Shown here: in pieces, positions 54,658 through 64,000 of the stretch | Position numbering within the stretch: position 1 is the first letter of the stretch | How the letters are laid out: each line of letters starts with the position of its first letter | Assembly (NCBI RefSeq): GCF_011100465.1 | Contig: NZ_CP049740.1 | Span: 1,790,001 to 1,854,000, forward strand | From: Jeotgalibaca arthritidis | GTDB lineage: Bacteria; Bacillota; Bacilli; Lactobacillales; Aerococcaceae | Direction: 5' to 3' | DNA length: 64,000 nucleotides | Position numbers and translations under genes: made by a program | The notes under the pieces: model-generated | Told to the model about the DNA's origin: nothing | The model's input: only the letters and a program-made list of their open reading frames with translations | Database searches by the model: none

Positions 54658-55068
54658 ATGCTGAAAAGGAAAGTAGGATGCATCATCATACTTATTGCTC
54701 TAATTGTCAGTGTTACATTAATCGACAAAAGTGAAGATGGTATTTTCATCGTATCTAAACAGGATATTCCTCAATCAATTGAAGTGATTAGGCATTATTT
54801 AGAAGGGGAAACAGTGCTTTACAAACATCCAACAATTATAATGGATTCTGAAAAGATAGCATCAGATACTAATAGTGGAGAAAGTAAAATTAGCTTAACG
54901 ATTGGTCAGCAAACAGAAGATATTATTTCTTATGTTGACTCAAATGTAAATAGATTTAATATAAAAATTAAGGTAATAGCATATGATGAATTAACAGGTG
55001 AAATCAGCATAAAATTATCTTACCGAGATGGTCTAGAAAAGATAAGTAAAACAATCACCTTCAAATAA
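54658..55068 (+). CDS. Hypothetical secreted or membrane-anchored protein
   Basis: Not recognised. 136 residues: a basic start MLKRK, one hydrophobic segment (about residues 7-21, VGCIIILIALIVSVT), then an extracytoplasmic part with predicted strands (IVSKQDIPQSIEVIRHYL, SKISLTIGQQTEDI, INIKIKV-type ends). Cys8 lies inside the hydrophobic part but without a lipobox. The start ATG follows GAGAAGG by eight bases; TATAAT at 54612 may be its -10. It stands alone between the iron operon and the prophage, flanked by hairpins on both sides. Confidence 0.65.
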   Translation: MLKRKVGCIIILIALIVSVTLIDKSEDGIFIVSKQDIPQSIEVIRHYLEGETVLYKHPTIIMDSEKIASDTNSGESKISLTIGQQTEDIISYVDSNVNRFNIKIKVIAYDELTGEISIKLSYRDGLEKISKTITFK

Positions 55069-55104
55069 AAAAATCCCGGCTTGGATATCCAAGTCGGGAT
55101 TTTT
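55067..55104 (+). terminator. Terminator after the hypothetical gene
   Basis: AAAAATCCCGGCTTGG pairs with CCAAGTCGGGATTTTT (one G-U pair). It marks the last clear chromosomal feature before the prophage. Confidence 0.88.
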
Positions 55105-55240
55105 AAAATTAAGATTAACCTAATTTGTTGTAAGGTTCAATCATTTCATAGGATAGTCTATAAACGTTGGTATGACTGGACTTTTAAGCCGTTCTCTCAA
55201 ATGCCTGGAAAAAATTAATGCCATAAAAAATGCCATTGGC
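55105..55240. other. Presumed chromosome-prophage junction (attL region)
   Basis: Non-coding stretch between the last host terminator and the integrase stop codon. The attachment core should lie here but cannot be identified without the right end of the prophage. Two direct copies of AATGCCAT (55217 and 55229), twelve bases apart next to int, could be integrase arm sites. No tRNA is seen. Confidence 0.4.
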
Positions 55241-56398
55241 TCAGTTTTCCATAAATTTGAGGAACTTATCAGCCGTTTCTTCCTTAGTCTTTTCGGTTAC
55301 GTGGGTATAAATATCCATCGTTGTTTTTATGTTCGCATGACCGAGCCGCTCTTTTACTTCCTGGAGCGATGCGCCCGCCTCGAACAGCAGGGAGGCATGT
55401 GTATGCCGGAACCCGTGAATTGTTATTTTCTTCAGGTCATTCTTTTGGAGAACATCCCTCAGCCAGTAGAACACAGCGGACGGGCGTATGTGCGTATTGT
55501 GATAGGTTGTAAAGATAGGCTGGTTAGGCTTGTTCGTATTGATGCCAAGCATGAGATATTTTTCCAGCTGATCCCTACGCCATCTTTTTAGCAGTGCCAG
55601 CGTCTCATCATCCAAACTGATAGAGCGAATGGATGCCTCTGTCTTTGGTGTGTTAACAATGACCTTTTTTAAGCCGATAGCGAGCGTTTTATTAATATGC
55701 AGCTGTTTACGTGTGAAATCAATATCGGACCAGTTCAGCGCCAGTATTTCACTCTTACGGGCACCAGTGAACGCTGCAAGGCGGAAAAATACCACTTTCT
55801 TCAGGTCTTTTACTTTAGAGGCGCACTCCATGAACGTCCGCAGTTCGTCCCGGGTGTAAAAGCCATCCTCCTGCTCATACTGGGCTTTGACTTTCTTTTT
55901 CTTCTTAGGCATGATGACTTTGTCGGCAGGGTTTATGCTACTGATCCCGCTATTGTTGGCGAAACGGTAAACCATGGAAACATAACTGTTCATGAGCTGA
56001 TACATGCCGACTTGACCGGCCCATTTGTTGACTGCTTTTTGAACCTGGGCGACCGTTATGTTGTTGATGCGGTACTTGCCCAACGATGGTAAAATGTAGT
56101 CATTGAAGTAGTATTTTGTCATGCGCAGCGTGTTCTCTTTGACGGTGTGCCGGTATTGATCCACCCACAGCTCATATACTTCCTTGAATGTGATGTTATC
56201 GTTATCCGTTTTACTGAGGCCGTTCTTGTCTACATCCAGCATTAACCTGGAGAGGGCAAGGTCGGCCTCTTTTTTTGTCTTAAAACCGGATCGCGTTGTC
56301 TTTTTAGGTTTCCCAGTTAGTGGGTCGATACCTAGATAGGTTTGGAACTTGTAGGCCGTAGAGCCGTCTTTTTTCGTGTATTTTGTAATGCTTGCCAT
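55241..56398 (-). CDS. int: Phage integrase, tyrosine recombinase
   Basis: Site-specific recombinase of 385 residues. N-terminal AP2-like arm-binding domain (ASITKYTKKDGSTAYKFQTYLG, YxxPxTGKxKxTTRSGFKTKKEA), a SAM-like core-binding domain (residues ~75-165), and the catalytic domain with the first Arg in TGARKSEIL, HxxR in HGFRHTHASLL, the second His in RLGHANIKTT and Tyr in MDIYTHVT. The start is the ATG eight bases after AGAGGA. Its base composition is richer in GC than the host genes to its left. Divergent from the early genes, as in temperate phages. Confidence 0.95.
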   Translation of the reverse strand: MASITKYTKKDGSTAYKFQTYLGIDPLTGKPKKTTRSGFKTKKEADLALSRLMLDVDKNGLSKTDNDNITFKEVYELWVDQYRHTVKENTLRMTKYYFNDYILPSLGKYRINNITVAQVQKAVNKWAGQVGMYQLMNSYVSMVYRFANNSGISSINPADKVIMPKKKKKVKAQYEQEDGFYTRDELRTFMECASKVKDLKKVVFFRLAAFTGARKSEILALNWSDIDFTRKQLHINKTLAIGLKKVIVNTPKTEASIRSISLDDETLALLKRWRRDQLEKYLMLGINTNKPNQPIFTTYHNTHIRPSAVFYWLRDVLQKNDLKKITIHGFRHTHASLLFEAGASLQEVKERLGHANIKTTMDIYTHVTEKTKEETADKFLKFMEN

Positions 56399-56484
56399 AG
56401 TCTTTTCCTCTTCTCTAGCACCGCAGGGCAACAGGCTTTTAAGAGGTGACCTTCTCCCGATTGGCTACGGGGTGGGCCGTTATA

Positions 56485-57147
56485 TTATTGATTATTTTTA
56501 ATATTATCTGTTTTGTTGATCGCCTCTGTCAAAATATCAGTGAGCTTATCATGCAGGGTTGCATCCATACCGTCTTTATATACTGTTACATCATGGCCAG
56601 CTTTTAAGTCCAAGAACATATTGTCAACAGTACTTAATAAGTCCTTTAAGGTGTTGTAAGTAATATTAATGGCGCCTTTATTTGAGTCGTCTTCTCCGCG
56701 TAGAAAGCGGAAAATCGTTTCATTGGCAAGCTTTTTCATTGCTTCAATCTCTGAGTGGCTGAGACCATGCTCTTTAACCAGGGTTATAAACTGAAATTTC
56801 AACTCTTTTAATTGAGATAGGTCTTTAAGTAGCAGGGTGACAAAGCTGTCAGGATCTTCATCTTTTATTAAATCCTCGATAAAAGTATCCAAGAATGTAG
56901 CGGCATACTCTCTGATATCCCCATATAAAAGCTCATCGACTGAAATTCCAGCAATACCGGAGATGATAGAAAGACGTTTATTATTAGGTAAATTTTTCCC
57001 AGTTTCCCAGTTGCTTATAGTTCCGCTCTGAATTTTACTTGTTTTTTCTACTTGACCGATTAAATTAGCGAATTCAGTCATGCTCATACCTTTGTTTCTT
57101 CTAATTTGTCTAATTCGATCCCCTACATCATTAGGATTGATATCCAT
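56485..57147 (-). CDS. Phage repressor, XRE-type HTH (CI-like)
   Basis: A 220-residue protein: N-terminal helix-turn-helix (VGDRIRQIRRNKGMSMTEFANLIG...SGTISNWETGKNLPNNKRL, residues ~8-60), followed by a helical C-terminal part. No LexA/CI autoproteolytic Ser-Lys domain and no metalloprotease motif is seen, so induction must work another way, perhaps via a partner protein. The start ATG follows AGGAGGT. Transcribed leftward with int from the switch region; its promoter overlaps a repeated operator. Confidence 0.85.
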   Translation of the reverse strand: MDINPNDVGDRIRQIRRNKGMSMTEFANLIGQVEKTSKIQSGTISNWETGKNLPNNKRLSIISGIAGISVDELLYGDIREYAATFLDTFIEDLIKDEDPDSFVTLLLKDLSQLKELKFQFITLVKEHGLSHSEIEAMKKLANETIFRFLRGEDDSNKGAINITYNTLKDLLSTVDNMFLDLKAGHDVTVYKDGMDATLHDKLTDILTEAINKTDNIKNNQ

Positions 57148-57167
57148 AAACACACCTCCTCTACTAA

Positions 57168-57196
57168 ATAATAAACTATCTCACAAAGAAACGCAA
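57168..57196 (-). promoter_or_regulatory. Leftward lysogeny promoter (TTGCGT-N17-TATTAT)
   Basis: Read on the minus strand; its -35 lies inside the first copy of the operator repeat, so the repressor can control its own gene. Confidence 0.7.
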
Positions 57197-57255
57197 AGTT
57201 TTTCTTGCGTTAAGTTAAAAAATGGTTTACACTATAATTACAAAGAAATGCAAAG
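57183..57255. promoter_or_regulatory. Phage switch operators and rightward promoter
   Basis: ACAAAGAAACGCAAAG (57183-57198) recurs as ACAAAGAAATGCAAAG (57240-57255). AACGCAA (57190) also pairs with TTGCGTT (57205) as an inverted repeat. The rightward promoter TTAAGT-N17-TATAAT (57210-57238) sits between the two direct copies, so occupancy of the second would block early transcription. Confidence 0.7.
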
Positions 57256-57273
57256 AAAAAAGGAGGAAGAGCT

Positions 57274-57498
57274 ATGACTAAGTTTGCAAAGCTTAGAAGA
57301 GGGAACGGACTCACTCAAAATGAAGTAGCCAAAGCTTTTAATATTACCAGACAAGCTTACTCAGCGAAAGAGCGAGGACTGTCTAGTTTTTCTGATAAAG
57401 AAAAGGTTATTTTCATTGAACTCGTCAAGCCAATGTTTCCACGTGAGACAATAGAAAGTATTTTTTTTACAACGGACGCAAAGAAAAGCAAAGATTAG
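57274..57498 (+). CDS. Cro-like HTH regulator
   Basis: A 74-residue XRE-family protein, almost only a helix-turn-helix (LRRGNGLTQNEVAKAFNITRQAYSAKERGLSSFSDKEKV). First gene rightward of the switch, directly after operator copies, with AAAGGAGGAAG before ATG. Likely antagonises the repressor to commit to lytic growth. Confidence 0.82.
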   Translation: MTKFAKLRRGNGLTQNEVAKAFNITRQAYSAKERGLSSFSDKEKVIFIELVKPMFPRETIESIFFTTDAKKSKD

Positions 57499-57516
57499 AA
57501 AGGAGGTGAGAGCAAA

Positions 57517-57792
57517 ATGGCAGAGCTGACGCTTAATGTATCTGATGACCTACAGCATCAAATAGAGGGCCTGCTAAGGCAAGCGGCTCTTAAAGTCATC
57601 GAAGAGGTATCAAGCAACGAGCTTCATAAGAAAGACTATTTCAATAAGAAAGAGGCTGCCGCATACCTGGGCATATCCTACAAAAGTCTCCAGAAACTCA
57701 TCCTCATGGGGTTACCGATGGTTCAGGTAGATAATATGACGCTCATCGCAAAAAACTCTATCAATGAATTCATGACGGACTTGGAAAGATAA
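57517..57792 (+). CDS. HTH / excisionase-like phage protein
   Basis: A 91-residue protein with a helical N-terminus and a MerR/excisionase-type winged helix (DYFNKKEAAAYLGISYKSLQKLILMGLPMVQVDN, residues ~44-78). It may act as excisionase for the integrase or as an early regulator; the sequence does not decide. AAAGGAGGTGAG precedes ATG by several bases. Follows the Cro-like gene by 18 bases. Confidence 0.7.
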   Translation: MAELTLNVSDDLQHQIEGLLRQAALKVIEEVSSNELHKKDYFNKKEAAAYLGISYKSLQKLILMGLPMVQVDNMTLIAKNSINEFMTDLER

Positions 57793-57857
57793 ACAAAAAA
57801 TAAGCATCCGCAGGGCAGCAGAGCTTAAACATGAGTATAAGTGAAAGGGTGTTAGTT

Positions 57858-57980
57858 ATGACAATTTTAGAAGAAACGTTTCTGGGTGGTTTGTTAGTGG
57901 GTATTACTGTGACGCTGGTAGCTCTTAAAATGTGGTTGATTGTGTTGGAAATGGTAGAAGAACAAAAAAATAGGGGGTAA
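57858..57980 (+). CDS. 40-residue phage membrane protein (paralogue A)
   Basis: A very small gene: MTILEETFLGGLLVGITV followed by TLVALKMWLIVLEMVEEQ. One membrane helix after a short acidic N-terminus. AAAGGGTG lies seven bases before ATG, and the stop overlaps the next start (TAATG), so it looks genuinely translated. Its first 20 residues match the protein encoded at 58909 at most positions (LGGLxVGxxxTLV), showing the two are paralogues. Function unknown. Confidence 0.6.
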   Translation: MTILEETFLGGLLVGITVTLVALKMWLIVLEMVEEQKNRG

Positions 57981-57985
57981 TGATG

Positions 57986-58351
57986 ATGGGAAACAGAGAA
58001 ACTGGTATGTGGTTACCGTTGGAAAAAGAAGCTATTAAAAAACAGGCCTGGTCTGCCCAGGATGATGTAGACGTCTTTCTTTCAGACTCAAAGAGAAGCA
58101 TCGAAAAAATGCGTGTGCTTGTTGATCAGATGACAGAAGACTGGTCGGAGTATGCAGATGAAATAGAGGAAGCGCCAGAGGATAGTGTAGGCGTTTATGT
58201 AAAGATGGCCATGATGAAGCTCTCACAACGCCATGGGGTTTATCTCGATCTGATGAACGAGATTTTAATGAATCAATCAAACGAACTGGAACAAGCAAAA
58301 CTTAATAACAGTAAGCTGCAGAAACTACAAAAAATGGATGCATCCCTTTGA
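57986..58351 (+). CDS. Hypothetical phage early protein
   Basis: Not recognised. About 121 residues, acidic, predicted mostly helical, with a likely coiled coil at the C-terminus (QSNELEQAKLNNSKLQKLQKM). Three ATG codons stand in tandem; the third is eight bases from TAGGGGGT. The last codons overlap the left arm of a hairpin (58335-58375). Confidence 0.65.
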   Translation: MGNRETGMWLPLEKEAIKKQAWSAQDDVDVFLSDSKRSIEKMRVLVDQMTEDWSEYADEIEEAPEDSVGVYVKMAMMKLSQRHGVYLDLMNEILMNQSNELEQAKLNNSKLQKLQKMDASL

Positions 58352-58375
58352 GCCGACGAAACTCAGATGCATCCA
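58335..58375. repeat. Hairpin with GATGCATCC arms
   Basis: TGGATGCATC and GATGCATCCA are perfect complements and enclose TGAG/CTCA around CCGACGAAA. A third GATGCATCC lies at 59116, before the structured element. Immediately downstream, GGGTAC/GTACC flanked by AGAAA/TTTTCT (58380-58412) forms a second, terminator-like hairpin with no long T-run. The 119-base gap up to 58470 holds no gene. Confidence 0.6.
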
Positions 58376-58470
58376 GACTAGAAAGTGGGTACCTTTTGTG
58401 TACCTATTTTCTGTCATTATAACATATTCAAAATGTAAAGTATAGAACCTTTACAGGAGGTGGGAAACTT

Positions 58471-58719
58471 TTGGAAGAAATAAAACTAACACACGATGGC
58501 CAGCTAGCCATTGCGACGGCCTACTCTCGTAAGGCCAGCAAGTGGAAGAACGGAGAAACAACCTGGTCACAGTTCTTGCAGCGCTTAAATAAACCAACTG
58601 AGACAAGCGAAACAGTTGCCGAGTATAAACAGATGAATGAAATTGATGATCGTATAAGTTGGGTGGCCAATATCATGGAAATTGAAAGAGGATATAACAG
58701 AAAATGGAGGAAAAAATAA
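58471..58719 (+). CDS. Short phage protein resembling a primase N-terminus
   Basis: An 82-residue protein. SRKASKWKNGETTWSQFLQRL...TETSETVAEYKQM resembles, from memory, the first ~50 residues of phage primase/VirE-like replication proteins, which continue with a DVGGFVGG-type motif; here the sequence changes to unrelated residues and stops. It may be a remnant or a recruited small protein. TTG start seven bases after AGGAGGTG. Stop overlaps the next start. Confidence 0.5.
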   Translation: MEEIKLTHDGQLAIATAYSRKASKWKNGETTWSQFLQRLNKPTETSETVAEYKQMNEIDDRISWVANIMEIERGYNRKWRKK

Positions 58720-58895
58720 TGGAACAATCAAAGGCTGAAACAGTGAAGGATCAAGTACAAAGTATTTATTCAATTACACAATCAGAAATTACAAATGAAG
58801 ATGGGACACCAATTTCAGTAGCAGACCTTCAAGACTTAGTTTATCAAGAAGTAGCTTACTTAGCTGAACTACTTGGTTTCGAATTAGAGGACTAA
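58719..58895 (+). CDS. Hypothetical phage protein
   Basis: Not recognised. 58 acidic residues (MEQSKAETVKDQVQSIYSIT at the start, VADLQDLVYQEVAYLAELLGFELED at the end), probably helical. ATG overlaps the preceding stop (TAATG) and lies eight bases after GGAGG. Confidence 0.6.
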   Translation: MEQSKAETVKDQVQSIYSITQSEITNEDGTPISVADLQDLVYQEVAYLAELLGFELED

Positions 58896-58908
58896 AGGGG
58901 TGGTGTAA

Positions 58909-59097
58909 ATGAATCTATTGCAAGAAGCATACTTAGGTGGTTTGGTTGTAGGGGTTATTGCAACGCTTGTAAGCCAATCTTCATGGAACCTGATTAAAGA
59001 TATTGTTACCGAATTTAGAATAATAAAAAAAAGCCTAAGAAATGCCAGTTTCTTAGGACAAGGAAAGTATTTTTTTGTAGAAATCTTTCTCTTATAG
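58909..59097 (+). CDS. 62-residue phage membrane protein (paralogue B)
   Basis: MNLLQEAYLGGLVVGVIATL shares its N-terminal membrane part with the 40-residue protein at 57858, then diverges into a basic tail (FRIIKKSLRNASFLGQGKYFF) and a second hydrophobic end. AAAGGGGTGG precedes ATG. Function unknown; holin-like size but in the early, not the lysis, region. Confidence 0.55.
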   Translation: MNLLQEAYLGGLVVGVIATLVSQSSWNLIKDIVTEFRIIKKSLRNASFLGQGKYFFVEIFLL

Positions 59098-59132
59098 TAA
59101 CGCAAATTAATTAATGATGCATCCATTTCTAC

Positions 59133-59237
59133 TATTGGTTGTTCACTAGAGGGTGGCTTCCCTTCCCGCCAACGCCATAAGTTAGCGATTTACGGCCGCT
59201 AAAGTGAGGGTAGCTACTTTCTATTGAACAACCAATA
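59133..59237 (+). ncRNA. Candidate structured phage RNA or DNA element
   Basis: TATTGGTTGTTCA and TGAACAACCAATA, perfect 13-base inverted arms, enclose ~79 bases that include TTAGCG/CGCTAA (around ATTTACGGC) and the palindrome GTAGCTAC. It fills the only sizeable gap (174 bases) in the early genes and is not followed by a T-run. No class was recognised. The strand is assigned from the gene direction only. Confidence 0.45.
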
Positions 59238-59271
59238 AAGACTAGGATAGCAAGGAAAAAGAGGGATTATA

Positions 59272-59544
59272 TTGGAAAAGAAAGCAGAAGAAATGATAGA
59301 AAATAACTCTATTGAATTCAATATAACATTGAGTCTAATTGAACAACTGATCGATAATCATGATTCACTAGTAAAAATAGCACAAAAAGTAGAGAAAAAA
59401 GAACTTACAGATTATACAGCTGCATATGAAGTTTTACGTTTATCAGGAAGAACAACTAATTCACTCACTTTAGCTCATCGTTTAGTTAGTGGTATGAACG
59501 ATTCTAACGAGGAGATATTAGCCGATACAACGGTGTTTGGTTAG
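59272..59544 (+). CDS. Hypothetical phage protein
   Basis: Not recognised. 90 residues, mostly helical and acidic (MEKKAEEMIENNSIEFNITL at the start, DYTAAYEVLRLSGRTTNSLTLAHRLV in the middle). TTG start with AAAGAGGGAT upstream. Lies between the structured element and the replication genes. Confidence 0.6.
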   Translation: MEKKAEEMIENNSIEFNITLSLIEQLIDNHDSLVKIAQKVEKKELTDYTAAYEVLRLSGRTTNSLTLAHRLVSGMNDSNEEILADTTVFG

Positions 59545-59572
59545 ATAACGCTTAAAGAAAGAGGGTGAGTAA

Positions 59573-60466
59573 ATGGCGATATATAGGCAAATTCAAATTA
59601 GCTTTTGGCAAGACGAATTAATTATTGAGTTAGAACCAGAAGAAAAATATTTTTACCTATATCTAATGACCAACGATAAAACAACTCAATGCGGTGTATA
59701 TCGCATTAATGAAAAAATCGTTGCTTTTGATACAGGTTATTCAATCGAAAAAGTTAGGGAATTGCTTCAAGTATTCGTTGCTAAAAAACGCATTATGTAT
59801 AACCAGGAACACAAAGAGTTATTTCTTCTTAACTGGCTAAAATTCAATAAAGCTAGTTCTCCTAAAGTAGCGGTGGTAGTTGACAGGGAACTGGCCAACA
59901 TAAAAACCATCGAATTTCATAATGAAGTGGTCAAACAGTGTTTACTATACGGCTACCCCATTAAAACTAAAGAGATACACTATCAATACCCTATCGATAC
60001 CGTATCTAAACAGGTTGGATATAGTATCGATACTGAAACGCAACCAGAACCAGAAGAAGAACCAAAACATAATAATAACCAGAAGCAGAATCAGAATAAC
60101 GCTCCTGCTACTAATGCCCACTTGTTCTATCAAAATAATTTTGGGGTAGCAAACCCGACTGTTATACAAACGATTGAACATTGGATCAATGACTTGAACG
60201 AAGCAATGGTTATTGAAGCAATGAGAAGGGCAGCCGTTGACCAAAAAGGTTTCAGATACGCTGAAGGCATCATGAAGAAATGGCTAAATAAAAATATAAC
60301 CACTATGCAGCAAGTACAGGCGGATGATGTTGCATTCTCCAATAAAAACGAGAAGCCTAACGGCATCTATAACCAAGAATTCAAGCGAACCGCAGAAGAT
60401 GAGGAGCGTTTGAGACGGTTAAATGATATTGATTTACCGCAAGGATTCTATGACAACCTTATATAG
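59573..60466 (+). CDS. Phage replication initiator, DnaD-like
   Basis: A 297-residue replisome organiser. N-terminal winged-helix part (IYRQIQISFWQDELIIELEPEEKYFYLYLMTN, CGVYRINEKIVAFDTGYSIEKVRELL), a polar Asn/Gln/Glu-rich linker (residues ~150-185), and a C-terminal DnaD_2-type domain (FYQNNFGVANPTVIQTIEHWINDLNEAMVIEAMRRA, FRYAEGIMKKWL). It should bind the phage origin and recruit the loader encoded next. Confidence 0.88.
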   Translation: MAIYRQIQISFWQDELIIELEPEEKYFYLYLMTNDKTTQCGVYRINEKIVAFDTGYSIEKVRELLQVFVAKKRIMYNQEHKELFLLNWLKFNKASSPKVAVVVDRELANIKTIEFHNEVVKQCLLYGYPIKTKEIHYQYPIDTVSKQVGYSIDTETQPEPEEEPKHNNNQKQNQNNAPATNAHLFYQNNFGVANPTVIQTIEHWINDLNEAMVIEAMRRAAVDQKGFRYAEGIMKKWLNKNITTMQQVQADDVAFSNKNEKPNGIYNQEFKRTAEDEERLRRLNDIDLPQGFYDNLI

Positions 60467-60480
60467 GAGGTAGAGCAGTA

Positions 60481-61341
60481 ATGATTAATACAAGCAAGTT
60501 AATGAGTAGCCGTTCAGCCTTTATTGATACGGCAATTAATAAAGGTGGCTTGCTGCCACTGGAAGAATACTCAACGTGTGAGAAACATATCAACGTGGAG
60601 TTATTCCAAAATCTCAAAACAAAAGAAATCATTTGTCCAGTGTGCTATTTGGAAAAACAATCCGATCAAACGGCTGCAACTGATTCCCAGGTACAAGATG
60701 GCGCATTTGGTGACAGAGCAAGAAAGTTCCGCTACTTAGCAAACCACTCATTATTTCAAAATAAAAATCTCATGAATAAAGGTTTCAAGGACTACAAGGC
60801 CACTACTAAAGAACAGAAAGAAAATCGAGATGCAGCATCTTCAACGGTTTCACGTATAGTAGGCGGCCAACCTTTGAATATCATCATTACAGGCAGCCAA
60901 GGCAGCGGGAAAACTCATTTGGCCACAGCCATCGGGAATAACGTGAACGCCATGAGCAACCGTGATGATATTCAAAAGACCGTTCTCTATTACAGCTTCA
61001 GTAGGTTGTTAAATGTAATCCGTGATAGCTACAGTAACCCAACGTTTAAGGGTGAAAAATATTATCTTGAACTCGCTGAAAAAGCTGACTTACTTATCTT
61101 AGATGATATAGGCGTAGAAATGGGTGGGACAGCAACAGGGAAGAAGTCCGAATTTAGTAACAAGATTCTATTCAGCTTGCTTGATACCAGAGAGGACAAA
61201 GCGACTATCATCACAAGTAATCTAAATTTAGAATCGCTTGAGAAGCAATATGATCCCCGTATCATCAGCCGTTTGAAAGCGAACATGGTGCCGATAACCT
61301 TCACTGAAACGGCTGATTACCGTGAAAAAATGATGATTTAA
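60481..61341 (+). CDS. Phage DnaC-like helicase loader ATPase
   Basis: A 286-residue AAA+ protein that loads the host replicative helicase. A Cys/His cluster near the N-terminus (CEKH...CPVC) may bind zinc. Walker A ITGSQGSGKTHLATAIGN near residue 140, Walker B LLILDDIGVE near residue 205, sensor-1 ATIITSNLNLE, and the arginine finger region DPRIISRLKANMVPI. AGGAGGTAGAG precedes ATG. Pairs with the DnaD-like gene. Confidence 0.93.
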   Translation: MINTSKLMSSRSAFIDTAINKGGLLPLEEYSTCEKHINVELFQNLKTKEIICPVCYLEKQSDQTAATDSQVQDGAFGDRARKFRYLANHSLFQNKNLMNKGFKDYKATTKEQKENRDAASSTVSRIVGGQPLNIIITGSQGSGKTHLATAIGNNVNAMSNRDDIQKTVLYYSFSRLLNVIRDSYSNPTFKGEKYYLELAEKADLLILDDIGVEMGGTATGKKSEFSNKILFSLLDTREDKATIITSNLNLESLEKQYDPRIISRLKANMVPITFTETADYREKMMI

Positions 61342-61401
61342 GAGGATGTGGCAGAGGGTGGCTGACAATAGGGTTCCCCAAAATTGAGGAGGCCCCAATT
61401 A

Positions 61402-61427
61402 AGGACTGTCCAATTTTGGACAGTCCT
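61402..61427. repeat. 12-bp perfect hairpin before the late regulator
   Basis: AGGACTGTCCAA and TTGGACAGTCCT are exact complements with a TT loop. It lies in the 129-base gap before the sigma-like regulator gene; no T-run follows. Operator or RNA hairpin cannot be told apart. Confidence 0.6.
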
Positions 61428-61470
61428 AATCAGCCGAAAACTAAGCCGATTAAAAAGAGGTGAAGCGAAC

Positions 61471-61866
61471 TTGTTTGAATGGTTGACTGAATATAGAAAG
61501 CTTGAAGAACGTATATCCTTCATTGAGTGGAATCTCAATAAAACTAAGTTAGAGCTGATTCGCTGGGAAGAAGGGGACTTAATGAATATTAAGTTAACCA
61601 ATGAATCAAGAGGGGCAAATGTTGAAAATGAAATTAAGCGATTGGAAGAAGAACTAGAGGAAACTGAAAGATTGAAAGAATCCTTATTAAACTTAATAGA
61701 TACCTTTGAAGGGTTAGATAACATAATAATTAAAAAGAAATATATTGAAGGCCTTTCTTTAGAAGATATTGCAGAAGTTGTCGGATATAGCACTTCTTAC
61801 GTCCGTAAACGTTATACCGAAATTAGAAAGACTTTAAAAATTATTGACCAATACACGGAAAAATAG
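61471..61866 (+). CDS. Phage late-gene transcription regulator (RinA/sigma-70 region 4-like)
   Basis: A 131-residue protein: long N-terminal coiled-coil (LEERISFIEWNLNKTKLELIR, VENEIKRLEEELEETERLKES) and a C-terminal helix-turn-helix like sigma region 4 (IIIKKKYIEGLSLEDIAEVVGYSTSYVRKRYTEI). Such proteins activate packaging and structural genes, which fits its place just before the terminase. TTG start eight bases after AAAGAGGTGA; an upstream ATG run lacks a site. Confidence 0.75.
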   Translation: MFEWLTEYRKLEERISFIEWNLNKTKLELIRWEEGDLMNIKLTNESRGANVENEIKRLEEELEETERLKESLLNLIDTFEGLDNIIIKKKYIEGLSLEDIAEVVGYSTSYVRKRYTEIRKTLKIIDQYTEK

Positions 61867-61901
61867 AAAGTTGCATCTTCACTAAATAGAGAGTTAGATT
61901 A

Positions 61902-62074
61902 ATGGCTATTTTTTAGCAGATGATTTCAAACATTTATTAAGTCAGATCCGTTATCTTGATGCTTTAACAGAATGGTTAGAAATAGATTTTGATGCTAAAG
62001 CAGTGGCCCGTGAAACTATTAAAGAATATGATGAGCTATTTTCAGCCATCGATTATGAGAATAAGGAACTTTGA
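61902..62074 (+). pseudogene. Small phage gene with a frameshift at T6
   Basis: ATG GCT ATT TTT TAG stops at once, but a -1 shift at the run TTTTTT (61909-61914) opens a frame reading MAIFLADDFKHLLSQIRYL to KEYDELFSAIDYENKEL, about 57 residues, whose stop lies a few bases before the next start. No other ATG, GTG or TTG starts that frame upstream. Either one T has been lost, the base call is wrong, or slippage is programmed. Function unknown. Confidence 0.5.
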
Positions 62075-62081
62075 GGAAAGG

Positions 62082-62204
62082 ATGAGCCTAATAGTTGCTG
62101 AAACGGAAAAACAAATAAAGGTGCAGGAAGCAGCAGATATAAATAACCTTGGAGATGATCCGAGCGCACACTTTGAGATGATGATGCAATTCCTGGAGAT
62201 ATAG
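62082..62204 (+). CDS. Hypothetical 40-residue phage protein
   Basis: Not recognised. Small acidic protein (MSLIVAETEKQIKVQEAADI at the start, FEMMMQFLEI at the end). GAGG lies five bases before ATG, eight bases after the end of the frameshifted frame. Confidence 0.5.
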   Translation: MSLIVAETEKQIKVQEAADINNLGDDPSAHFEMMMQFLEI

Positions 62205-62346
62205 CCGGCACTTTCGGCAGCCTAAAAAAGCATACTCACATTTCTCAGAGTGCAATAAGCCTTAAATTAGATCACGTATGCAACACGCAATAGGAGGGAG
62301 ACAATGGCTCTCCCTCATTTTATTAAAGAACAGAGGTGAAAAGTTA
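62205..62346. other. Gap before the small terminase gene
   Basis: No gene is seen. In tailed phages the packaging start (cos or pac) commonly lies in or near the small terminase gene, so this stretch is a candidate place, but no diagnostic motif was found. Confidence 0.25.
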
Positions 62347-63129
62347 TTGATTGAATGGGATCCAATACGTAAGGAATATGAGGAGACAGGCATTAACATG
62401 ACAGACCTGGCCAACAAGTACGGCATCAAGCCCGCTACACTCCGAAAAAGAAAGTCACGTGACAGCTGGGAAAAAGTCACACAGGACGTGACTAAGAAAG
62501 TGACGCGTGACCTGCAGCGGGAGACGAAGGAGGTTCTCAGTGAGTCCGATCTCTCAGACATAGAAGAAAGGTTCTGTCTTGAGTATATGGTGGACTTTAA
62601 CAAAACCCAGGCATACATGCGGGCACGACCTGGAACAGCTTATAACTCAGCAGCTACCAGCGCACAGCGGTTGTTCCAAAAAGATAAAGTCCAGGAACGC
62701 CTGGCCGAACTACGAGACGCAAAGGCTAACGAGCTCTTTTTGACAGCTTTGGACCTGGACGCGCAACTCCTGAAGCAGGCTATGGCCGATATGAGGCAGT
62801 TTGCTGAATGGGGTACTGAAGAAATAACGTCCGAGGAGTATACCGCCGAGGGTCTAAAGATTGAACACAAGAAAATAAAGCCGTTCCTGCGCTTCAAGAA
62901 TTCGGAGCAGGTAGATGGCCAACTCATCCAAGAGGTGAGCCTGGGCCGTGACGGCTTACGCGTGAAGCTTCCTGACAAGCAGCGTGCCATCGCCGAGCTA
63001 CTGAAACGCTTTGAGTTTGGGGATGACTATGATGCACACCAACAGATGGAAGATGATGGCTTCATTAAAGCTTTGGGGTTAACGGCCGCAGAATTGTGGC
63101 CAGAAGAAGAAGAGGAGGATAATACTTGA
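62347..63129 (+). CDS. terS: Phage terminase small subunit
   Basis: DNA-recognition subunit of the packaging motor, 260 residues. N-terminal HTH (MTDLANKYGIKPATLRKRKSRDSW), then the Terminase_2 core LSDIEERFCLEYMVDFNKTQAYMRARPGTAYNSAATSAQRLFQKDKVQERLAEL, and an acidic C-terminus (WPEEEEEDN) that would contact the large subunit. TTG start seven bases after AGAGGTGA. The gene and those after it are visibly richer in GC than the replication genes before. Confidence 0.9.
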   Translation: MIEWDPIRKEYEETGINMTDLANKYGIKPATLRKRKSRDSWEKVTQDVTKKVTRDLQRETKEVLSESDLSDIEERFCLEYMVDFNKTQAYMRARPGTAYNSAATSAQRLFQKDKVQERLAELRDAKANELFLTALDLDAQLLKQAMADMRQFAEWGTEEITSEEYTAEGLKIEHKKIKPFLRFKNSEQVDGQLIQEVSLGRDGLRVKLPDKQRAIAELLKRFEFGDDYDAHQQMEDDGFIKALGLTAAELWPEEEEEDNT

Positions 63130-63434
63130 AGAAATCAACAGAGATAGACGACATCAAAGAAAGCCTAGTTTTTGCGCTGGAAGAACTGGGGGGCTTGGCC
63201 GGATCCATGCAGTTGGCCACGATTGCAACCAACGCAATGAATCGAATGGCAGAAAATTCAGGGGCGGAAACCGCTACTAACCTGCAGCGTGCTGCGAAGA
63301 TTGGACTGCCTGAAATCATGGACGTCCAGCGGAATTGCTACCGACGCATTAAAATTGTGGAGGATCTCCTGCAGTCTGAAGTCGTGAACTTGATCCGTTT
63401 GACGAAGGAGGCAGCCGACGATGAAAGAGTCTAG
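63126..63434 (+). CDS. Hypothetical phage protein
   Basis: Not recognised. 102 residues, helical, with LVFALEELGGLAGSMQLATIATNAMNRM and a C-terminal helix. TTG start overlaps the terS stop, with GAAGAGGAGG just upstream. Position next to terS suggests a role in packaging, but that is only context. Confidence 0.6.
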   Translation: MKKSTEIDDIKESLVFALEELGGLAGSMQLATIATNAMNRMAENSGAETATNLQRAAKIGLPEIMDVQRNCYRRIKIVEDLLQSEVVNLIRLTKEAADDERV

Positions 63435-63738
63435 TTTCGGAGCAGTACGCCCCGTTGTGGCCGTTATCTTGAAAGAGTACCCAGAGATGGTCTTGCGCCC
63501 AGGAGCAAGCGGCGTGCGTGCCTTGATTGCAACCTATGAAGATGAAGACTGTAGAAAGCTTCAGTCTGTGACTGTCTCGATGCTGAAAGGGAAAAGCTTT
63601 ACTGTTCCTGCCAGCGATATTGACCATATAAATATGGGAACGAGCAGAGCCCACCGATCCGATGACGAGAATTGGCAAGAGTTAGAAGACGCTGCTTTCC
63701 ATTACCGAAACACCATAGCAGATATCTTTGAATTTTAA
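63421..63738 (+). CDS. Hypothetical phage protein
   Basis: Not recognised. 105 residues with mixed strands and helices (FGAVRPVVAVILKEYPEMVL at the start, ASDIDHINMGTSRAHRSDDENWQELEDAAFHY near the end). Starts 14 bases inside the preceding gene; AAGGAGG precedes ATG. Confidence 0.6.
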   Translation: MKESSFGAVRPVVAVILKEYPEMVLRPGASGVRALIATYEDEDCRKLQSVTVSMLKGKSFTVPASDIDHINMGTSRAHRSDDENWQELEDAAFHYRNTIADIFEF

Positions 63739-63759
63739 CCGCTGGGAGGAAAAGGATGC

Positions 63760-64000
63760 ATGAGTTATGAAGTGACGGAGGAGGACCTGGCCACTATCAG
63801 AAGGGCAGTAGCGGAGTTAGTGGCCGAAGATTATGACCCGCCTGCTGATATCAGAAAAGATGAAGAGGAAAATCAAGATAAGTTTTTCCGCAATACGAAA
63901 CTCCTGCTAAAGAATTATAGAAAGATGAAAGAGGATGCGAAGCATGTCCCACTAATTGAGGATCAATTACTATTTGATATTGAAACAGAGATTTTCGGAG
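63760..64000 (+). CDS. Hypothetical phage protein, cut by the window edge
   Basis: First 80 residues only. Acidic helical start (MSYEVTEEDLATIRRAVAEL), then FFRNTKLLLKNYRKMKEDAKHVPLIEDQL, a pattern I associate from memory with phage regulators of the ArpU/RinA type. GGGAGGAAAAGG precedes ATG; an overlapping ATG four bases upstream stops at once. The identity needs the missing C-terminus. Confidence 0.5.
   Translation, partial: MSYEVTEEDLATIRRAVAELVAEDYDPPADIRKDEEENQDKFFRNTKLLLKNYRKMKEDAKHVPLIEDQLLFDIETEIFG

What the first reader, a model, noticed from the sequence alone, without database searches (positions are those of the whole stretch)
59133..59237. A 105-nt element closed by a 13-bp stem in the phage early region
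Perfect 13-base arms enclose a partly self-paired, more GC-rich core, in the only long gap between early genes and directly before the gene preceding the replication module. It has no T-run and no ORF. It could be a non-coding RNA (antirepressor or sponge), or a replication origin structure.
Basis: inference. Interest (0 to 1): 0.6.

Follow-up and report, generated by a model that had tools for sequence, protein, structure and literature searches.

The report
Hairpin beside a phage antisense-RNA site
A real and very strong 105-letter hairpin lies in front of the replication genes of a small phage-like island, next to a spot where related islands appear to carry a tiny antisense RNA gene; the hairpin itself has no relatives that we could find, and its job is still a guess.

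Summary
The hairpin (here "B", window 59133-59237) is real and far beyond chance: 30 pairs, z -6.9 as + RNA, and a higher stem score than any other hairpin in about 1.7 Mb of related DNA scanned. It is an orphan: one copy in its genome, no relative in 394 other genomes, in phage or plasmid records, or in Rfam. The surrounding "phage" is a ~14.3-kb island at rpsD with terS and a tape-measure gene; no terL, portal or capsid gene was recognised.

B lies in a recurring slot. After a small membrane-peptide gene, the island's element A (58328-58424) and six slots from four related genomes hold a predicted short convergent minus-strand RNA gene, in layout like phage lambda OOP. A scan found such promoter-terminator pairs upstream of DnaD on the minus strand in 64 of 98 redundant loci, on the plus strand in 1 of 98. 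B's slot has the minus terminator, lacks a good minus promoter, and is longer than A's by exactly 105 nt (250 against 145).

Best reading: a stem-loop in the + leader of the replication operon, beside a diverged antisense-RNA site (0.4). Its function is inferred. Sponge and origin readings are not supported.

The parts
59133..59237 (.). Hairpin B, the finding: 13-bp perfect outer stem, 12-pair middle stem, 5-pair inner stem, 41-nt apical part that can pair with itself
59025..59057 (-). Intrinsic terminator of the minus strand (stem 59057-59034, T8 at 59032-59025), inside the 3' part of ORF 58909-59097
59094..59099 (-). Weak -10-like hexamer TACTAT of the minus strand, at about the distance from the terminator seen in L188 and L214 (by eye; poor match)
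   Evidence: read
59266..59271 (-). TATAAT of the minus strand, overlapping the start of ORF 59272 and without a good -35; alternative promoter if B is the 5' domain of a ~235-nt minus RNA
58909..59097 (+). 62-aa ORF, membrane-peptide family (second copy)
59272..59544 (+). 90-aa gene (TTG start, AGAGGG upstream) that precedes the DnaD-like gene; 33% identity over 52 aa to the 92-aa protein of L186 (E 5e-05 for the single comparison)
59573..60466 (+). DnaD-like replication initiation gene
59981..60044 (+). Iteron-like repeats (TATCGATACC type) inside the DnaD-like gene; better origin candidate than B
60481..61341 (+). DnaC-like helicase loader gene
58328..58424 (-). Element A: predicted antisense RNA gene. 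Extended -10 TGTTATAAT (58424-58416), RNA about 58410 to 58328, terminator stem 58374-58336 followed by T6 (58334-58329)
58376..58415 (.). Short hairpin of element A; motif ACTAGArrGTGG shared with hairpin B
57858..57980 (+). 40-aa membrane peptide gene (first copy)
58471..58719 (+). 82-aa ORF matching only the N-terminal part of the 829-aa primase/helicase-like proteins of L186 and L189
55113..55132 (+). Left copy of the 20-bp att core; the other copy overlaps the 3' end of rpsD 14.3 kb to the right (window-equivalent 69444), beyond the window

Best explanation
Hairpin B is a discrete 105-nt stem-loop added to the control slot between the island's first early genes and its replication operon. 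SHOWN by computation: the stem; its lack of relatives; the slot's usual predicted content in related elements, a convergent minus-strand RNA gene ending in an intrinsic terminator at the preceding gene's 3' end; a minus terminator of that kind left of B; the extra length. INFERRED: early + transcription runs through B, which folds in the leader about 20-25 nt ahead of the ribosome-binding site of gene 59272, in front of DnaD and DnaC. There it most likely acts as a double-stranded RNA landmark: an RNase III site or protective 5' structure that separates the replication mRNA from the upstream early mRNA and its antisense RNAs, setting how much replication protein is made on induction. A close functional picture is the cII-OOP-O junction of lambda, where convergent transcription and a small antisense RNA tune entry into replication.
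For: (1) Strength; top score in about 1.7 Mb. (2) Slot: seven other slots (A, L186, L187, L188, L189, L214, L217) hold a minus terminator, a short hairpin and a -10-like minus sequence between a membrane-peptide module and the next gene; the -10 is TATAAT in A, L187, L189 and L214 and poorer in L188, L217 and L186. (3) Length: slot B 250 nt against 145 for A and 110-131 for the six others; 250 minus 105 is 145. (4) Strand: all four non-Watson-Crick pairs inside the stems are G.U on the + strand and would be A.C on the minus strand; chance about 0.06 if random. (5) Parallel: 29 of 80 viral-contig loci found by DnaD carry a different long hairpin with an ORF of 60 aa or more to its right; 27 of the 29 have TGCTATAAT on the minus strand left of that hairpin, followed by a terminator-like hairpin with a T-rich tail. 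(6) General: minus-strand promoter-terminator pairs upstream of DnaD in 64 of 98 loci against 1 of 98 on the plus strand and 0-4 of 98 in shuffles; 9 of 21 against 1 of 21 in islands chosen by integrase.
Against: No relative of B was found, so there is no covariation and no proof of selection. B itself was not a hit of the promoter-terminator scan. The 98 loci are redundant: 13 clusters, 5 with a minus hit, 1 with a plus hit, and 31 of the 64 hits are one position (35 nt ahead of DnaD) in one phage group. The scan also finds minus pairs in 35 of 96 loci downstream of DnaD, so the signal is not confined to the slot. One of the 9 island hits (L189) came through a -10 variant that I added after seeing it. 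The parallel hairpins keep their sequence rather than their pairing (no pairing-preserving two-sided change among 10 variants), which fits DNA sites as well as RNA. There are no transcript data. The RNase III step is inference only.
Confidence: 0.4

Rival explanations
1. Hairpin B is the expanded 5' domain of a minus-strand antisense RNA (about 235-290 nt) that starts right of it and ends at the terminator 59057-59025; it would block translation or transcription of gene 59272 and the replication genes, as plasmid countertranscripts or OOP do.
For: Minus terminator; TATAAT 59271-59266 and TGTTATATT 59328-59320 on the minus strand (by eye); slot content in relatives; the minus RNA also folds strongly, z -5.85.
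Against: TATAAT overlaps the start codon of 59272, whereas in the seven other slots the minus -10 lies 25-52 nt ahead of the next start; no good -35; G.U pairs favour the + strand; predicted length more than twice that of A.
Confidence: 0.2
2. Hairpin B is an inserted palindromic mobile element (MITE-like): 13-bp inverted ends with TA at the tips, dropped into a normal slot, without a function for the island.
For: Discrete 105-nt excess length; perfect inverted ends; higher GC than the surroundings; TA at both ends.
Against: Single copy in its genome; the inverted ends with this spacing occur in 1 of 335 genomes, its own; none in viral or genome contigs by exact pattern, none in phages or plasmids; TA is part of the palindrome, so no independent target duplication; the motif shared with element A (itself only suggestive) would be unexpected.
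Confidence: 0.22
3. Hairpin B works as DNA: operator, looping site or cruciform for a regulator or recombinase between the minus antisense-RNA promoter and the replication operon.
For: Inverted 13-bp arms; in the 29 parallel loci the stem sequence, not the pairing, is conserved, and further dyads flank it in the six loci printed.
Against: The 12-pair stem has G.T mismatches as DNA; the repeat finder listed no second copy of the arms at 55000-64000 (largest families only); no such site family is known to me.
Confidence: 0.12
4. Hairpin B is the replication origin or a single-strand initiation site.
For: Position just ahead of the replication genes; its loop holds TAGCGAT, which resembles a recalled motif of single-strand origins of rolling-circle plasmids (recall, not tested).
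Against: Iteron-like repeats lie inside the DnaD-like gene; none were found in B; the initiator is DnaD/DnaC-like, not a rolling-circle nickase.
Confidence: 0.05

Closest known systems
OOP antisense RNA and promoter pO of phage lambda
   Same: For element A and the slot: short convergent RNA, own promoter near the replication genes, intrinsic terminator at the 3' end of the preceding early gene
   Different: No sequence relation tested; here one or more genes lie between it and the initiator gene; hairpin B is an extra without a counterpart in the passages read
Plasmid countertranscribed RNAs upstream of rep genes (pT181, pIP501 type; recalled)
   Same: Minus-strand short structured RNA ahead of a replication initiator gene
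   Different: No attenuator shown; island, not plasmid
Type I toxin-antitoxin loci (txpA/RatA, Fst; recalled)
   Same: Small one-helix peptide gene with a convergent RNA, overlapping its 3' end in several islands
   Different: The two window peptides match no toxin family in Pfam or NCBIfam; one to three genes lie between peptide and RNA in some islands; toxicity unknown
MITE or other palindromic mobile elements (recalled)
   Same: Perfect inverted ends, TA at the ends, palindromic, discrete length
   Different: Single copy, no relatives found
PICI-type phage satellites (recalled)
   Same: ~14.3-kb island with integrase, divergent repressor, replication genes and terS
   Different: Carries a 934-aa tape-measure gene; helper, excision and transfer unknown; could be a prophage remnant

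Membership tests
Lambda OOP-type antisense RNA (claim made for element A, not for hairpin B) | Promoter on the strand opposite to the early operon, near the replication genes | tested here: met
   Extended -10 TGTTATAAT at 58424-58416; similar stretches in 9 other genomes, some just ahead of a start codon by eye. For hairpin B: inconclusive, only weak candidates
Lambda OOP-type antisense RNA (claim made for element A, not for hairpin B) | Short RNA ended by an intrinsic terminator at the 3' end of the preceding early gene | tested here: met
   A: ~83 nt predicted, terminator 58374-58329 at the end of ORF 57980-58351. B: terminator 59057-59025 present, RNA start unknown
Lambda OOP-type antisense RNA (claim made for element A, not for hairpin B) | RNase III-dependent decay of the target mRNA | not testable with these tools
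   Needs RNA work
MITE | Terminal inverted repeats | tested here: met
   Perfect 13 bp
MITE | Several copies or relatives | tested here: not met
MITE | Target-site duplication | tested here: inconclusive
   TA at both ends is part of the palindrome
DnaD-type phage origin | Iterons in the element | tested here: not met
   Repeats are at 59981-60044, not in B
Intrinsic terminator | Stem followed at once by a run of T on one strand | tested here: not met
   none at either end of B
Rfam families | Score at or above the gathering threshold | tested here: not met
   none. Best sub-threshold matches: MIR5380 22.9 of 150 bits (B), rli26 24.5 of 100 (A, minus), SdsR_RyeB 24.0 of 38 (59092-59025, minus, around the terminator left of B), fstAT 19.1 of 72 (58376-58454, plus)
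Type I toxin-antitoxin | Toxicity of the peptide, neutralised by the RNA | not testable with these tools
   Layout only
PICI-type satellite | Integrase, divergent repressor, replication genes, att sites, no capsid genes | tested here: met
   absence of capsid genes rests on the proteins scanned
PICI-type satellite | Induction and packaging by a helper phage | not testable with these tools
   Needs phage work

The most novel reading that the evidence does not exclude
Phages and phage-like islands with DnaD-type replication genes commonly guard the entry to their replication operon with a fast-evolving OOP-like antisense RNA gene that keeps its layout but not its sequence, and hairpin B is an added structural domain of such a site that decouples or tunes the replication mRNA.
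Probability: 0.35. Interest if true: 0.65.

Novelty: new variant of a known kind. Interest (0 to 1): 0.45.

Why it matters
If the slot reading holds, antisense control at the door of replication, known in detail for lambda, would be a general layout in phages and islands with DnaD-type initiators, found by position and promoter-terminator signature rather than by sequence. That would make a set of unannotated RNA genes directly testable by stranded RNA-seq. For the hairpin alone the gain is small until a transcript or a relative is found.

Tried and rejected
Searches for B: own genome; 75 other genomes of the family (best others E 0.01-0.07, 20-29-nt pieces); 394 other genomes of the order at E <= 0.001; phages; plasmids; exact arm patterns in viral and genome contigs; an 18-nt core pattern in viral contigs (2 matches, judged chance after reading them); a one-sequence covariance model R1 in 30 sources, 76 genomes and 69 further loci; arm pattern with gap in 335 genomes. 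R1's only outside match, L056 3062-3165 (E 1.4e-05 on the minus strand, 0.0015 on the plus), is a hairpin with a different stem sequence beside an ssb gene. I treat it as a match of stem shape, since R1 rests on one sequence; it is the nearest thing to a relative found.

A-B homology: the local alignment score was reached by 22 of 2000 shuffles (affine gaps) and 2 of 2000 (free gaps); with free gaps 1 of 138 other windows reached it against A and 2 of 138 against B. Suggestive, not relied on.

Trans-pairing of A with B: rejected. tRNA or tmRNA: none. Defence families in 10 island proteins: one weak DndD hit for 57980-58348. Relatives of gene 59272 in genomes: three weak hits. Membrane-peptide search in viral contigs: none confirmed. 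A slot-core DNA pattern in viral contigs: 5 stretches, 2 of them the islands already seen, 3 judged chance. DnaD searches with the single protein in genome and viral contigs: none confirmed. The hairpins of L037 and L038 at first looked like relatives (same size, CACTAG in L038) but share a core with each other, not with B.

In the scan I dropped loci without a DnaD match that starts within its first 6 residues, or with less than 1500 nt upstream; 98 of 114 were kept.

Full report
OBSERVATION. Arms 59133-59145 and 59225-59237 pair perfectly, a 12-pair and a 5-pair stem follow inward, and the element folds at -52 kcal/mol as + RNA (z -6.88, 0 of 200 shuffles), less well as minus RNA (z -5.85) and as DNA (z -5.08). 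A simple stem score (ungapped arms, span up to 160) of 57 puts it first in the window (next 43) and above every hairpin listed for 136 further loci of related islands, prophages and phages, 55 kb of its own genome among them (next best 53). It is not a terminator, tRNA, tmRNA or known Rfam family.

UNIQUENESS. The element occurs once in its 2.35-Mb genome. A DNA search of 395 genomes of the order found only itself, phage and plasmid records gave nothing, and its arms with this spacing occur in 1 of 335 genomes, its own. A covariance model from the single sequence found nothing in 75 other genomes of the family or in 69 further loci, and one match in L056 (E 1.4e-05) that I read as shape only.

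THE ELEMENT AROUND IT. A 20-bp att core lies left of the integrase gene (55113-55132) and again at the 3' end of rpsD, 14.3 kb away (rpsD and the neighbour ezrA confirmed by Pfam). Between them lie integrase and repressor genes on the minus strand, small early genes, DnaD- and DnaC-like genes, a sigma-like regulator gene, terS, several unknown genes and a 934-aa tape-measure gene. No large terminase, portal or capsid gene was recognised among the proteins scanned. I read it as a satellite of PICI type or a prophage remnant; the tools do not decide.

ELEMENT A. The 119-nt gap 58352-58470 holds a minus-strand extended -10 (TGTTATAAT), a short hairpin and a strong minus-strand terminator (GGATGCATC ... 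GATGCATCC followed by T6), giving a predicted RNA of about 83 nt. A DNA search with this region hit short stretches in 10 other genomes. Nine of the ten matches overlap the -10 region, some just ahead of a start codon on the matching strand by eye; one (L075) matches the other end of the query. I take this as support that the region is a promoter.

THE SLOT. I aligned membrane peptides seen in the islands. A profile search of 76 genomes of the family found eight matches in five genomes, among them both copies in the window. Each peptide gene is followed, directly or after one to three small genes, by a gap before the next gene. The eight gaps (L186, L187, L188, L189, L214, L217, window A, window B) all have an A-run on the + strand beside a stem, hence a minus-strand terminator. 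Seven have a -10-like minus sequence at a comparable place and a short hairpin: TATAAT in A, L187, L189 and L214, TATTAT in L188, TAAAAT in L217, TAATAT in L186; window B has no good one. The stems differ in sequence while the layout stays: the terminator stem is CCTTGTAC/GTACAAGG in L186 and GGATGCATC/GATGCATCC in A around a common TGAG/CTCA core. Gap lengths from A-run to the end of the start codon are 110, 118, 120, 120, 122 and 131 in the others, 145 in A and 250 in B. Hence B looks like a standard slot plus 105 nt, exactly the size of the hairpin. The gene after B (59272) is weakly similar to the 92-aa protein of L186 (33% over 52 aa).

HOW GENERAL. I scanned 3 kb upstream of DnaD in 98 loci for an extended -10 followed by an intrinsic terminator. 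The minus strand has such a pair in 64 of 98, the plus strand in 1 of 98, shuffles in 0-4 of 98 over eight rounds. Downstream of DnaD the counts are 35 of 96 (minus) and 0 of 96 (plus), so the signal marks the strand opposite to the operon, with an excess upstream. With TGnTATAAT alone the counts upstream are 20 of 98 (minus) and 0 of 98 (plus), downstream 6 and 0 of 96. The loci are redundant: 13 clusters by DnaD DNA identity, 5 with a minus hit upstream, 2 downstream, 1 with a plus hit upstream; 31 of the 64 hits lie 35 nt ahead of DnaD in one phage group. In 21 islands chosen by integrase (the window in both sets), 9 have a minus pair, 1 a plus pair, against 0.6 in shuffles; L189 counts there only through a -10 variant added after seeing it, and the slots of L186, L187 and L188 fail the thresholds. 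Window B also fails them.

A PARALLEL. In 29 of the 80 viral-contig loci found with the DnaD alignment, a different hairpin with 15-nt arms lies upstream of DnaD, with an ORF of 60 aa or more in the 460 nt to its right in all 29; 27 of 29 have TGCTATAAT on the minus strand to its left, followed by a terminator-like hairpin and a T-rich tail; in the other two a plain TATAAT was found farther off (one search had counted both kinds together). Organisms are not given for these contigs. Among 10 stem variants there are 5 G.U on the + strand, 1 pair that would be G.U on the minus strand and 4 other mismatches; no pairing-preserving two-sided change was seen, so this stem may be conserved as DNA. I count it as a positional parallel, not as homology.

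MECHANISM. My best reading is a stem-loop in the + leader of the operon 59272-DnaD-DnaC, beside a diverged antisense-RNA site, acting through double-stranded RNA processing or protection. Shown: structure, slot, strand asymmetry of promoter and terminator signatures. Inferred: transcription, processing and effect on replication. In lambda, the convergent pO promoter lowers transcription from pR, and loss of functional pO impairs replication (PMC3985674, abstract read). OOP RNA lowers cII expression through RNase III (review PMC12197685, passages read). Prophage BTP1 has an OOP counterpart at the lambda position and an antisense RNA annotated as 786 nt that excludes superinfection (PMC7067206, passages read).

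LITERATURE. Nine searches of the held open-access library were answered. In their listings I saw no title or abstract start that reports OOP-like RNAs as a general feature of phages with DnaD-type initiators; the library lacks most subscription papers, and I read passages of two papers and the abstract of a third only. Statements on plasmid countertranscripts, type I toxins, MITEs, PICIs and single-strand origins are recalled.

VERDICT. The hairpin is real and remarkable in strength, an orphan by sequence, and best understood through its slot. The specific proposals of sponge and origin are not supported; a non-coding RNA role is plausible and unproven. The better-supported RNA gene nearby is element A.

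Noticed in passing
window 55113-64000 and ~5.5 kb beyond (L160 to 9464): A ~14.3-kb island at rpsD with terS and a 934-aa tape-measure gene but no recognised large terminase, portal or capsid gene: satellite or remnant.
   Followed up: partly
window 57858-57980 and 58909-59097; L186, L187, L188, L189, L214, L217: A family of 35-42-aa one-helix peptides (62 aa in the window's second copy), the two window copies unmatched to any family above cut-off in Pfam and NCBIfam, in all eight cases followed by the antisense-RNA slot; possibly type I toxin-like or regulatory peptides.
   Followed up: partly
window 58471-58719: ORF matching only the N-terminal part of an 829-aa primase/helicase-like protein of related islands; suggests the early region is a mosaic of two replication modules.
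   Followed up: partly
L037 1309-1414; L038 10224-10334 and 16283-16396: Three 106-114-nt elements in two genomes with perfect or near-perfect 17-19-bp outer stems of different sequence around a shared core (GGAGCCCG..GGGC).
   Followed up: no
L124, L146, L152, about 0.9-1.3 kb upstream of DnaD: A long imperfect hairpin (TTTCC..GGGAAAATCAA / TTGAA(T/C)TTTCCC) recurring in three phage contigs.
   Followed up: no
L058 8465-8988: A stretch with repeated ACTCTC..GAGAGT arms forming large inverted repeats in a prophage-bearing region.
   Followed up: no
window 58335-58346, 58366-58375, 59116-59125: GATGCATCCA, a near-palindrome, is enriched in the window with up to one mismatch (12 found, 3.7 expected); the three exact copies lie in the slots of A and B.
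   Followed up: partly
window 59025-59092, minus strand: Sub-threshold Rfam match to SdsR_RyeB (24.0 of 38 bits, E 0.18), around the terminator left of B; probably terminator shape.
   Followed up: no
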